26,538 nucleotides of DNA from the IMG/VR virus record IMGVR_UViG_3300047322_000219, positions 1 through 26,538 of that record; one strand, given 5' to 3'. Made by a program: the position numbers and the translations under genes. Below are positions 1,329 through 23,765 of this stretch, piece after piece. The notes under the pieces were generated by a model. That model was not told the origin of the DNA. It did not search any database and saw only the letters and a list, made by a program, of their open reading frames with translations. Numbering within the stretch: position 1 is the first letter of the stretch; every line of letters starts with the position of its first letter. This DNA is from a virus.

Positions 1329-1794
1329 TCGGGCGTTGTATTACGTCCTGGACGCCAACGGCGAACCCGCCGTCGTCGACCTGGATAATTGGGGGGCATG
1401 GTTTGACGACGCCGACGCGCGCATCGTCATGCAAACCCGGATCGCGAAGGGACGCGCCGTCGAATGTCGCCCGCGGGCATGGGGTCGCGGCGGCGTCGTC
1501 GTGTCGACCGTGTTCCTCGCGATCGATCACGCGCACGACCTGGGACCGCCCGTCTTATGGGAAACGATGATCTTCGGGGGACTCATGGACGGCGACCAAT
1601 GGCGATACCGATCCCGCCTGGACGCCCTGACGGGGCACGCCGCCGCCGTGCGGCGCGTCCAGGCGATCCGCCGTCTACCTCGCAAAACCAAGATCGCCCT
1701 GGCGACCCGAACCCGCGGGCGCCTGACGCCCCGCCAGGGGCGCCGGGTCGCCCGGTTCGACGCCCAGGTATCCCGTATAGACGCTATGGTTTAG
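1318..1794 (+). CDS. conserved phage protein of unknown function
   Basis: A protein of about 158 residues. The segment STVFLAIDHAHDLGPPVLWE followed by TMIFGGLMDGDQWRY and a later GHAAAVRRV helix is a pattern I recognise from a very common uncharacterised phage protein family; the order AWFDDADARIV, then STVFL, then the E-T-M-x-FGG motif, is typical. No catalytic role has been assigned to that family as far as I know. Two consecutive ATGs at 1318 and 1321 could each serve as the start. The C-terminus is longer and more basic than usual (TRTRGRLTPRQGRR). The TAG stop lies inside one arm of the inverted repeat before the next promoter. Confidence 0.75.
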   Translation: MMFDRALYYVLDANGEPAVVDLDNWGAWFDDADARIVMQTRIAKGRAVECRPRAWGRGGVVVSTVFLAIDHAHDLGPPVLWETMIFGGLMDGDQWRYRSRLDALTGHAAAVRRVQAIRRLPRKTKIALATRTRGRLTPRQGRRVARFDAQVSRIDAMV

Positions 1795-1818
1795 GCGCGG
1801 TCCTAAACCCTATGGTTT
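1784..1818. repeat. operator-like repeat cluster upstream of the integrase operon
   Basis: Two direct copies of CTATGGTTT occur at 1784-1792 and 1810-1818, the second within CCCTATGGTTT. Between them GGTTTAGG (1788-1795) and CCTAAACC (1802-1809) form a perfect 8-bp inverted repeat around a 6-base loop. The cluster ends just before the -10 element at 1825. The same motif recurs around the promoter at 22253. I infer protein-binding operators; a weak hairpin terminator for the upstream cluster is a second reading because the preceding stop codon lies in the left arm. Confidence 0.65.
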
Positions 1819-1821
1819 CCA

Positions 1822-1830
1822 TGGTATAAT
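1822..1830 (+). promoter_or_regulatory. extended -10 promoter for the integrase operon
   Basis: TGGTATAAT gives a perfect -10 hexamer (1825-1830) with the TGn extension. No good -35 lies 16-18 bases upstream, which fits an extended -10 promoter. The hexamer ends 7 bases before the ATG at 1838, so transcription should begin at or one base before the start codon and the mRNA should be leaderless. No ribosome site is present. The flanking CCCTATGGTTT copy at 1808-1818 would place a bound regulator directly on the core promoter. Confidence 0.7.
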
Positions 1831-1837
1831 CGACGCC

Positions 1838-2110
1838 ATGCCGAACGCCCCCCGCACGCTATACGACGTCGCGCGCAAAATCTGCCATGACGCCGGGTAC
1901 CCGTGGACGGATCCGCGCACGGGCATCACGTATCCGCCGAAACGCTTTGTCGTGCATTCGACCCCGCCTAGTTCGGTCGGGCGCCGTGTCGTCGATCCGC
2001 ATCGCGTCGTCGACACGACGACCAATTCCACGATCGATAGTTATTCCTCGAAACGCGCCGCGACGATGCACGCGGCGTATCTGAACAAGTACGAAGGGAA
2101 AAGTAAATGA
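1838..2110 (+). CDS. hypothetical protein, first gene of the integrase operon
   Basis: A protein of 90 residues that I do not recognise. It begins with TLYDVARKICHDAG, similar in flavour to the opening of other small phage proteins, then has a Pro- and Val-rich middle and a C-terminal helix (SSKRAATMHAAYLNKYEG). There is no signal peptide or cysteine cluster. It starts 7 bases after a TATAAT, probably on a leaderless message, and its TGA overlaps the integrase ATG in an ATGA junction, so both proteins should be made together. Genes in this position sometimes encode a recombination directionality factor or a regulator, but the sequence itself does not show which. Confidence 0.7.
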   Translation: MPNAPRTLYDVARKICHDAGYPWTDPRTGITYPPKRFVVHSTPPSSVGRRVVDPHRVVDTTTNSTIDSYSSKRAATMHAAYLNKYEGKSK

Positions 2111-22195: not shown

Positions 22196-22215
22196 ACTTC
22201 TGTACGTACAGAAGT
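22196..22215. promoter_or_regulatory. perfect 20-bp palindrome in the divergent control region
   Basis: ACTTCTGTACGTACAGAAGT reads identically on both strands with no spacer. It sits 27 bases upstream of the protease-capsid ATG and 38 bases upstream of the opposing promoter's -35. A loop-free palindrome is a poor hairpin and fits a dimeric repressor or activator operator. The half site CTGTAC is not a recognised LexA box because the spacing is too short. Confidence 0.6.
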
Positions 22216-22225
22216 CCCTTTGTAT

Positions 22226-22272
22226 CCTAGGGTTTAGGGGCGACCCTATGGTTTGACAGAACCCTAGGGTTT
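22226..22272. repeat. three operator-like copies over the cassette promoter
   Basis: CCTAGGGTTT at 22226-22235, CCTATGGTTT at 22245-22254 and CCTAGGGTTT at 22263-22272 are spaced by 19 and 18 bases. The third is inside the palindrome AACCCTAGGGTT (22260-22271) and fills the spacer between -35 and -10; the second runs into the -35. A protein bound there would cover the promoter. The same motif occurs at 1784-1818. Confidence 0.7.
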
Positions 22273-22281
22273 CTGTATAAT
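22253..22281 (+). promoter_or_regulatory. perfect consensus sigma70 promoter for the opposed cassette
   Basis: TTGACA at 22253-22258, a 17-base spacer and TATAAT at 22276-22281 match the sigma70 consensus exactly. The -10 ends 7 bases before the ATG at 22289, so transcription should begin at the start codon or one base before it, and there is no ribosome site. The overlapping operator-like repeats imply tight control of a very strong promoter. Confidence 0.85.
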
Positions 22282-22288
22282 CAATGGC

Positions 22289-22654
22289 ATGAACAACATC
22301 ACGTCGTTAGTCGAATTGAACGCCGCCCACCCGCCCACGTTCCGTGAGTGGATGGGATGGACACTACGCCGCGAATACGCCGTCGGGCGCGCGGGTCGTC
22401 AGAATGCGCGCCGCGGGACCATGGGCGCGAAATCGCATTTGCTTATGGTCGAAGTGATCGTGTCGGTCGGCGATGATGCGAAGTACGCGGATCGCGTCGG
22501 CGAATTGCATCGCGTGCGCGGTTGCACGTCGTCGAACGGACAATTTACCGGAACCGTCGTCAAGGGGGCGGAACTGGCGGGCATTACGTGCAAGCGTTGC
22601 CTATCGAAACTCGCGGAACTGGCGGCGGTTCGCCGCGCCCAGGGGGTTGCGTAA
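22289..22654 (+). CDS. hypothetical protein, first gene of the opposed cassette
   Basis: A protein of 121 residues that I do not recognise as a whole. It opens with NITSLVELNAAHPPTFREW, has a basic middle (GRQNARRGTMGAKS), a strand pair (HLLMVEVIVSVGDDAK), and ends with HRVRGC, a later GITCKRC and a helix LSKLAELAAVRRA. An H-x4-C plus CxxC layout of this type recurs in small phage proteins and may hold one zinc ion. It is probably translated from a leaderless mRNA. The stop shares a base with the next start (TAATG). Regulation by the shared operator motif is likely. Confidence 0.75.
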   Translation: MNNITSLVELNAAHPPTFREWMGWTLRREYAVGRAGRQNARRGTMGAKSHLLMVEVIVSVGDDAKYADRVGELHRVRGCTSSNGQFTGTVVKGAELAGITCKRCLSKLAELAAVRRAQGVA

Positions 22655-22918
22655 TGCCCGCGACGACAAACCGGGATGCGGAATTGATCCGCATCCCGCG
22701 GCGGTTCATCCAGGATTCTAGCGACCGCGGATACATCGTCCCCGACGTCGTGCGCGCGACGTCGCGCCACTTCTGGATCCTGCGTCACGATCCCGCCATG
22801 GCGGAACTGATCGGCGACGCGCGGTTTCTACTCCGACCGCGGCGCCCAGGATCACGACTTCGGCGCCCGCGCGCTACTCCGCGCGTTGGCGTCCCAGGGG
22901 GTCGACGATGCCCGCTAG
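22654..22918 (+). CDS. frameshifted conserved phage protein
   Basis: The first 58 residues read IRIPRRFIQDSSDRGYIVP, then RHFWILRHDPAMAELIGDARF in one frame. In that frame the protein then turns into an Arg-rich shadow up to 23076. Moving forward one base at CGG-TTT-CTA (22822-22830) continues as YSDRGAQDHDFGARALLRAL and ends at TAG 22916, giving 87 residues. This matches a phage family I know in which DARYYAD-like sequence is followed by an ARALLRAL helix, so the break is real relative to the family. It may be +1 recoding, a mutation or an assembly error. It overlaps the next gene by 11 bases. Confidence 0.65.
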
Positions 22919-23150
22919 GACGGCGGCGTCGGTCCCCGTCGTGTGCGATTGGTGCGAACGCCCGACGACGCGCGAACCGCGATACGGGCGCCGCACGCGT
23001 CGCCATAAGTGCCCCCATGGGACTTGGTGTCCGCGCGCCGACCGCCTCCGGTTGCACGACAATCATTACCCCATGAACGGCGTATGCGACGCGTGTCGCC
23101 GTGGGTACTGGGTCCGCGAACATGCCCGCGTCGAAACGAGGGGGAAATAA
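22908..23150 (+). CDS. small zinc-ribbon protein
   Basis: A protein of 80 residues with three Cys groups: CDWC near residue 13, CPHGTWC near 35 and CDAC near 60, interspersed with basic residues (YGRRTRRHK). This suggests one or two zinc-binding ribbons, as in many small phage DNA- or RNA-associated proteins. The start is within the end of the preceding gene, and the stop overlaps the next start (TAATG). I do not recognise a specific family. Confidence 0.7.
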   Translation: MPARTAASVPVVCDWCERPTTREPRYGRRTRRHKCPHGTWCPRADRLRLHDNHYPMNGVCDACRRGYWVREHARVETRGK

Positions 23151-23347
23151 TGCCGATCAAATCGCCGACCCGCGGATACTCGCGGGCGTTTCCGTTCGAC
23201 CCCGACACGCGCAAGCGATACATGTTGGACGACATCCCCGCGGGGTTCTGGATTCGCGTGCGCGCCAAGTGCAAACGCGACGGCGTGTCCGTGCGCGGGT
23301 TGATCCTGTCACTCCTGGCGAATTGGTTGAACGACGGGGGCGAGTAA
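23150..23347 (+). CDS. ribbon-helix-helix-like protein
   Basis: A protein of 65 residues. After a short variable N-terminus (KSPTRGYSRAFPFDPDTR) comes YMLDDIPAGFWIRVRAKCKRDG, then VSVRGLILSLLANWL. A strand followed by helix, a short turn and second helix is the ribbon-helix-helix layout, with the DIPAGFWIRVRAK motif a common variant. It should be a dimeric DNA-binding protein. Both junctions are TAATG. As the RHH member of a cassette driven by the repeat-covered promoter, it is a good candidate for autoregulation, which is untested. Confidence 0.72.
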   Translation: MPIKSPTRGYSRAFPFDPDTRKRYMLDDIPAGFWIRVRAKCKRDGVSVRGLILSLLANWLNDGGE

Positions 23348-23535
23348 TGATCCAGGCCAGTCAACGATCCGTCGACGGGACGACCCTGTATCGTTGGTAC
23401 GTCTTCGTCGGGCGAACGCGGTTTGTTACCTGGGCGCCCACGGTCGACGCCGCGATCGCAAAAACACAACAACGCGCCGCGATGAAGGGGTTGCGCGTCG
23501 ACCGCGTCGAACCCGCGCCGCCCCTCGCCCCCTAA
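23347..23535 (+). CDS. small hypothetical protein, last gene of the cassette
   Basis: A protein of 62 residues that I do not recognise. It has two strands (TLYRWYVFVGRTRFVTWA) and one helix (TVDAAIAKTQQRAAMKGL), then a Pro-rich end. A strand-strand-helix fold of this size may be a small subunit-binding or DNA-mimic type protein, but nothing is diagnostic. The stop overlaps the stop of the convergent RHH gene by three bases (23533-23535), leaving no room for a separate terminator. Confidence 0.6.
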   Translation: MIQASQRSVDGTTLYRWYVFVGRTRFVTWAPTVDAAIAKTQQRAAMKGLRVDRVEPAPPLAP

Positions 23536-23765
23536 TCCCCCGCGCCGTCCCGTTTCGGCCCCGGCGCGAGGTCTGACCAATCGCGCCGCGGGCGGTCGAA
23601 CCGTTCGTCGATCATTTCCCGAATCACGCCCGATACCCCCCGCCCCGTCGCGTCGGCGACCCGCCGCAGTTCGATCCGATGCGCGGGCGTCACCCGCACG
23701 ACGACCCGTTCAGACGCCGTCGTGCCGTACGCGGGCGGTCGCCCCTGGATGCGTTTGTCAGTCAT
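23532..23765 (-). CDS. CopG-like ribbon-helix-helix protein
   Basis: A protein of 77 residues. SERVVVRVTPAHRIELRRVADATG followed by VSGVIREMIDERFD gives strand, helix, turn and second helix, as in CopG/Arc repressors. An N-terminal GRPPAYG segment may contact the minor groove. The C-terminus is charged and short. It is directly downstream of the large terminase (TAATG junction) as the last gene of the packaging block. It may regulate the adjacent opposed cassette or the late genes. Confidence 0.75.
   Translation of the reverse strand: MTDKRIQGRPPAYGTTASERVVVRVTPAHRIELRRVADATGRGVSGVIREMIDERFDRPRRDWSDLAPGPKRDGAGD

What the first reader, a model, noticed from the sequence alone, without database searches (positions are those of the whole stretch)
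1784..1838. Integrase operon promoter predicted to be leaderless and covered by CTATGGTTT repeats
An extended -10 TGGTATAAT ends 7 bases before the ATG, with no ribosome site. Two direct copies and an inverted pair of the repeat abut it. The arrangement is mirrored at 22226-22289, making a shared regulator and shared leaderless mode likely.
Basis: partly seen in the sequence, partly recalled or inferred. Interest (0 to 1): 0.7.

Follow-up and report, generated by a model that had tools for sequence, protein, structure and literature searches.

The report
Repressor operators on phage integrase promoter
A soil phage appears to control its integrase with a small self-regulating repressor whose 14-base binding sites sit on two promoters, both of which seem to start transcription right at the start codon; the same repressor and sites recur at integrase promoters of many otherwise different uncultured phages.

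Summary
TATAAT occurs only twice in the 26.5-kb window. Both copies lie 7 nt before an ATG without a Shine-Dalgarno (SD) site, and both are flanked by copies of one 14-bp palindrome. The palindromes look like operators. The 22289 promoter drives an operon containing a 65-aa Arc/ParG-like ribbon-helix-helix (RHH) protein (23150-23347). In IMG/VR, 16 of 17 phages whose RHH has the same type of DNA-reading strand carry the palindrome upstream of the RHH gene; none of 12 with other strands does (motif trained on window sites only). In eight phages the RHH gene directly precedes an integrase gene (one serine, seven tyrosine); in the window and two others the integrase is a separate unit carrying the same operators. 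Best explanation: an autorepressing RHH protein shuts off its own promoter and the integrase promoter by covering the -35/spacer. Leaderless starts are well predicted in the window and in several relatives, but other members have SD leaders, so leaderlessness is not general. Binding, start sites and host are untested. RHH regulation of this kind is known (P22 Arc, CopG, ParG); an integrase regulon around this RHH subfamily was not found described in the libraries searched.

The parts
1779..1792 (.). operator d (AGACGCTATGGTTT; right half canonical, left half degenerate); overlaps the stop codon of the upstream ORF (ends 1794)
1805..1818 (.). operator e (AAACCCTATGGTTT), covering the -35/spacer region of the integrase-operon promoter
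1822..1830 (+). extended -10 element TGGTATAAT; no consensus -35
1837..1838 (+). predicted transcription start (0-1 nt leader); inferred from -10 spacing
   Evidence: inference
1838..2110 (+). 90-aa ORF of unknown function, first gene of the integrase operon; start codon position supported by a relative in L018
2107..3885 (+). large serine recombinase (integrase), 592 aa
   Evidence: Pfam Resolvase/Recombinase/Zn_ribbon_recom; phrog_95 integrase E 2e-65
22222..22235 (.). operator a (GTATCCTAGGGTTT)
22241..22254 (.). operator b (CGACCCTATGGTTT), overlapping the -35
22253..22258 (+). -35 TTGACA
22259..22272 (.). operator c (GAACCCTAGGGTTT), in the -35/-10 spacer
22276..22281 (+). -10 TATAAT, 7 nt before the ATG at 22289
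22289..22654 (+). 121-aa ORF of unknown function, first gene of the RHH operon; replaced by an unrelated 134-aa ORF in relative L015
23150..23347 (+). 65-aa Arc/ParG-like RHH protein, proposed repressor binding all five operators

Best explanation
The CTATGGTTT repeats are parts of 14-bp palindromic operators for the phage's own 65-aa Arc/ParG-like RHH protein (23150-23347). RHH dimers bind side by side over the -35 and the -35/-10 spacer of two promoters: the strong promoter at 22253-22281, which expresses the RHH operon itself (negative autoregulation), and the extended -10 promoter at 1822-1830, which expresses a 90-aa protein and the serine integrase. Binding excludes RNA polymerase, so the integrase is made in a burst when little RHH protein is present (entry, or after its dilution or inactivation) and then switched off. 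Both transcripts are predicted to begin at or within 1-2 nt of the start codon and to be translated as leaderless mRNAs. Shown by sequence: operators, promoters, co-occurrence with the RHH subfamily and with integrases. Inferred: binding, repression, timing and leaderless initiation.
For: Motif far above chance and restricted to the two promoters. A matrix from only the five window sites gives a score of at least 12 within 2 kb upstream of the RHH gene in 16 of 17 phages with the [KR]RY[LM]LD-type strand and 0 of 12 with other strands; a permuted half-site motif averages 0.8 of 17. terL relatives L024 and L025, without this RHH operon, have no site. TTGACA with an operator in the spacer is repeated in L170, L175, L176, L177 (two promoters), L181 (two promoters) and L182. 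RHH gene directly followed by an integrase: serine in L169; tyrosine in L170, L174, L074, L178, L179, L183, L189. Integrase as a separate unit with its own operators: window, L177, and L180/G018 about 8 kb away. RHH fold: ParG and Arc are the best PDB matches; phrog_6506 'Arc-like repressor' matches 7 of 9 members, best 5e-8. TATAAT-7nt-ATG conserved in L015 although its first gene differs; TATACT-7nt-ATG in L022; TAGACT-6nt-ATG in L072.
Against: No binding or start-site data. L074 has an RHH gene and integrase but no detectable operator. The window RHH itself gives no PHROG hit and only a sub-threshold ParG hit, and the AF2 model is mediocre (pLDDT 72, pTM 0.42, no defined ribbon strand). The strand-class split was noticed while looking at the motif results, so its p-value is not from a pre-set test. 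The integrase promoter has a degenerate second site and no -35, so it may respond differently. Leaderless starts are not conserved across the regulon. Host unknown.
Confidence: 0.77

Rival explanations
1. The operators belong to the phage immunity (CI-like) HTH repressor encoded beyond the window's right end, not to the RHH protein; the RHH gene is simply one of the repressed genes.
For: A divergent HTH pair lies in the continuation of this phage (L019/L066); several palindromes at early promoters is the classic immunity-repressor layout; 14-bp palindromes also fit HTH dimers.
Against: The motif is absent from the HTH intergenic region and from the whole 13.5-kb continuation contig. The motif follows the RHH strand class across unrelated phages.
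Confidence: 0.12
2. The other window RHH protein (Arc-like, 23535-23765, minus strand) binds the operators.
For: It is an RHH protein (phrog_3431) next to the operon.
Against: Homologues sit in the same place in L024 and L025, which lack the operators.
Confidence: 0.05
3. The promoters are regulated as described but are not leaderless: transcription starts upstream (readthrough from the 86-1794 genes for int, or another promoter) and the ATGs are read from led mRNAs.
For: Upstream genes 86-1794 run towards int on the same strand; several relatives have leaders at equivalent promoters.
Against: The only TATAATs in 26.5 kb both sit 7 nt before an ATG; no SD at either start; spacing conserved in L015 despite a different first gene.
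Confidence: 0.2
4. The repeats are recombination sites (integrase or excision-factor binding, part of attP) rather than transcriptional operators.
For: One cluster is 0.3 kb from the integrase gene.
Against: The other cluster is 20 kb away at a promoter; the same sites occur in phages with serine and with tyrosine integrases and typically overlap promoter elements.
Confidence: 0.02

Closest known systems
P22 Arc repressor and its Pant operator (own knowledge; Arc structures)
   Same: Small phage RHH repressor acting on an early promoter with operator DNA between -35 and -10; negative autoregulation.
   Different: Arc lies in the P22 immI region and controls ant, not an integrase; operator sequence and N-terminal arm differ.
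phrog_6506 'Arc-like repressor'
   Same: Seven of nine members of the RHH family here match it, best E 5e-8.
   Different: The window protein itself does not reach E 0.1; the library names no target or operator for the family.
ParG / CopG plasmid RHH autorepressors
   Same: Fold and mobile N-terminal region; repress their own promoters (own knowledge).
   Different: No partner ATPase seen; second target is an integrase operon; operator unrelated.
CvkR and Arc_1/Arc_2 regulators of type V-K CAST (PMC9938897)
   Same: Regulator encoded in a mobile element represses the element's own mobility genes through a ~15-bp palindrome; cvkR and cas12k are leaderless; some CAST systems carry small Arc-like RHH regulators.
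   Different: CvkR is MerR-type; targets are cas12k and tnsB; cyanobacterial transposon, not a phage.
MrpR / SPBRE of Bacillus phage SPbeta (PMC10516654)
   Same: One phage-encoded repressor acting through a repeated 15-bp element at several promoters in a phage with a serine recombinase.
   Different: MrpR is a recombinase-fold repressor that maintains lysogeny; integrase control through the element was not among the passages read.
Lambda cI mRNA from PRM (own knowledge; also cited in PMC9938897)
   Same: Leaderless phage transcript from an operator-covered promoter.
   Different: The leaderless genes here are an unknown ORF before an integrase and an unknown ORF in front of an RHH gene.

Membership tests
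RHH (MetJ/Arc) DNA-binding proteins | Strand-helix-helix core of about 45 aa | tested here: met
   Helices 31-44 and 48-62 follow the conserved strand segment; Foldseek best matches ParG, Arc, AmrZ, CopG; ParG by profile E 0.058. Model confidence moderate; strand not resolved in the monomer model.
RHH (MetJ/Arc) DNA-binding proteins | Sequence match above curated cut-off | tested here: inconclusive
   Pfam ParG below cut-off; phrog_6506 matched by 7 of 9 relatives, not by the window protein.
RHH (MetJ/Arc) DNA-binding proteins | Dimer reading operator DNA through the beta-strand | not testable with these tools
   Indirect only: strand class and operator presence covary, 16/17 versus 0/12.
Autoregulated phage repressor regulon | Operators overlap promoter elements of the repressor's own operon | tested here: met
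   22222-22281; L022, L072, L176, L181, L182.
Autoregulated phage repressor regulon | Second target with the same operators in the same genome | tested here: met
   Window int promoter; L177 and L180 integrase promoters.
Leaderless gene | -10 element 6-7 nt upstream of the start codon, no SD | tested here: met
Leaderless gene | Mapped 5' end at the start codon | not testable with these tools
   No transcript data.

The most novel reading that the evidence does not exclude
A portable integrase-control module, made of an RHH autorepressor with its palindromic operator set, is shared by diverse uncultured phages, follows the integrase gene whether serine or tyrosine type, either inside its operon or in trans, works apart from the CI-like immunity repressor, and in some phages adds leaderless initiation as a second control layer.
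Probability: 0.4. Interest if true: 0.65.

Novelty: new variant of a known kind. Interest (0 to 1): 0.52.

Why it matters
It turns a repeat seen by eye into a specific, cheaply testable regulon: one 65-aa protein, one 14-bp operator, two promoters. It suggests a recurring way for soil phages to control integrases of either chemistry with a dedicated RHH repressor, assigns a probable target to part of an Arc-like family of unknown role, and provides natural strand/operator pairs for studying RHH specificity.

Tried and rejected
Direct-repeat reading: replaced by 14-bp palindromes. Motif as host-wide or chance signal: rejected. attP or excision sites: rejected. Arc-like 23535-23765 as binder: disfavoured (present in L024/L025 without sites). 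HTH pair: motif absent from its region. The operator-promoter pattern scan of viral contigs also returned eight unrelated low-GC hits (L008-L012, L014, L016, L017), ignored as chance. Three further weak matches in G003 (27302, 27645, 31264) are not promoter-like. The L071:4223 match lies inside an ORF and was judged chance. Host search: the RHH gave no genome hit; terL gave only distant relatives, best 42% in an Acidobacteria MAG, so the host stays unknown. A relative of the window RHH (L072) had no match in INPHARED phages, nor the window RHH in PLSDB plasmids.

Full report
OBSERVATION. The window is a 26,538-bp IMG/VR phage record. Both arrangements are as described. Integrase side: AGACGCTATGGTTT (1779-1792), AAACCCTATGGTTT (1805-1818), extended -10 TGGTATAAT (1822-1830), CGACGCC, ATG at 1838. 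Second side: GTATCCTAGGGTTT (22222-22235), CGACCCTATGGTTT (22241-22254) running into the -35 TTGACA (22253-22258), GAACCCTAGGGTTT (22259-22272) in the 17-bp spacer, TATAAT (22276-22281), CAATGGC, ATG at 22289. Five CTAKGGTTT were found where third-order Markov simulation gives 0.10 (maximum 2 in 300). TATAAT occurs nowhere else in the window on either strand, and both copies lie 7 nt before an ATG (0.04 expected). Neither start has an SD site, while downstream genes of the RHH operon have strong ones.

WHAT THE REPEAT IS. The full unit is a 14-bp palindrome. From 32 sites of the window and relatives, half-site preferences are A/C, A, A, T/C, C, A/C, T, i.e. (A/C)AA(C/T)C(A/C)TA(G/T)G(G/A)TT(T/G). 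At the second promoter the sites cover the -35 and the spacer, where bound protein would exclude RNA polymerase. That is the layout of a repressor operator.

WHO BINDS IT. The operon from 22289 includes a 65-aa protein (23150-23347) with RHH character: weak Pfam ParG, ParG as best PDB sequence match (E 0.058), and an AF2 model (pLDDT 72) whose best PDB folds are ParG, Arc, AmrZ and CopG. Seven of nine family members match phrog_6506 'Arc-like repressor'. Relatives were collected by terminase, operator-promoter pattern and RHH. In the ~95% identical phage L007/L015 the operators, TTGACA and TATAAT-7nt-ATG are kept although the first gene differs; the RHH gene is kept. In L022 the RHH gene itself is first, behind GAATCCTAGGGTTC and TATACT-7nt-ATG. 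In L023 two operators precede an operon carrying the RHH gene. L024 and L025, with 71% and 84% identical terminases, have neither the RHH operon nor sites, although they keep the Arc-like RHH beside terL; this argues against that second RHH as binder.

THE BROAD TEST. A matrix from the five window sites alone was run on 29 dereplicated RHH loci. With the strand class resembling the window's ([KR]RY[LM]LD and close variants), 16 of 17 have a site scoring at least 12 within 2 kb upstream of the RHH gene; with other strands (KRVYFMLD, RRVRFEID and others), 0 of 12. Fisher p = 2.5e-7. Column-permuted half-site motifs average 0.8 of 17; the highest permutation reached 12, probably one close to the true motif. 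The class boundary was noticed from the motif results, so the p-value is descriptive. In several phages the promoter reads operator-TTGACA-operator-(-10) (L170, L175, L181), as in the window.

LINK TO INTEGRASE. In L169 the RHH gene is followed 0.5 kb on by a serine integrase homologous to the window's (E 5e-76), with an operator upstream. In L170, L174, L074, L178, L179, L183 and L189 it is followed by a tyrosine integrase (L178 and L189 were assigned by similarity to the others and by eye, without a Pfam hit; L183 is below the Pfam cut-off). In L177 the integrase is a separate unit with its own operator pair, and in L180/G018 it lies about 8 kb from the RHH promoters with its own operator. 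So the window's split arrangement recurs, and integrases of both chemistries are targets. L074 lacks a detectable operator.

LEADERLESSNESS. With the -10 ending 7 nt before the ATG, initiation 7-8 nt downstream gives a 0-1 nt leader. The same spacing (6-7 nt) is seen in L015, L022, L072 and, with an uncertain -10, L076. L172, L174, L176, L177, L180, L181 and L182 have leaders, often with SD-like sites or small repeated hairpins. Leaderless starts are thus a well-supported prediction for this phage but not a defining property of the regulon.

MECHANISM. Most likely the RHH protein represses its own strong promoter and the weaker -35-less integrase promoter, giving an early burst of integrase and then shut-off. 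Binding, repression and timing are inferred. The CI-like alternative is disfavoured because the motif is absent from the divergent HTH region of this phage (L066) and from the whole continuation contig.

KNOWN CONTEXT. P22 Arc (own knowledge) is the closest working analogue. CvkR in type V-K CAST systems (PMC9938897) shows that leaderless expression and an element-encoded repressor acting on mobility genes occur together elsewhere, and that paper also describes Arc-like RHH regulators in such elements. MrpR/SPBRE (PMC10516654) is another phage repressor acting through a repeated 15-bp element. Searches of the open literature for RHH control of phage integrase gave no direct precedent, but subscription papers are not covered.

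VERDICT. Observation confirmed, interpretation largely right and extended: a new variant of a known kind.

Noticed in passing
window 22196-22215: 20-bp perfect palindrome ACTTCTGTACGTACAGAAGT in the leader of the capsid gene (minus strand); L022 has CCTGATGTACGTACATCAGG with compensating arms; minus-strand RNA folds with z = -3.9. Function unknown: RNA hairpin or a second operator.
   Followed up: partly
window 26538 (right end): Independent contig L013 ends at exactly the same base while L019 and L021 read through it, next to HNH and small-terminase genes: possibly a cos end, or an assembly break.
   Followed up: no
window 22289-23535: A plus-strand early operon sits between large terminase and capsid inside a minus-strand structural cassette; its first genes differ between near-identical phages (L015) and the operon is absent in L025.
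   Followed up: partly
L180/G018 and L177/G015: Operator-led promoters within each phage share a leader hairpin (GCCGCGATGGAGGCGGC in three G018 promoters; GGGCGGAAAGCCC-like in G015), suggesting a second shared layer of control in leadered members.
   Followed up: no
L066 321-962 and neighbour: Divergent HTH pair (CI/Cro-like) in the continuation of this phage, without the operator motif.
   Followed up: partly
L183 660-1000: Two RHH-type proteins in tandem, each behind its own operator, before a tyrosine integrase.
   Followed up: no
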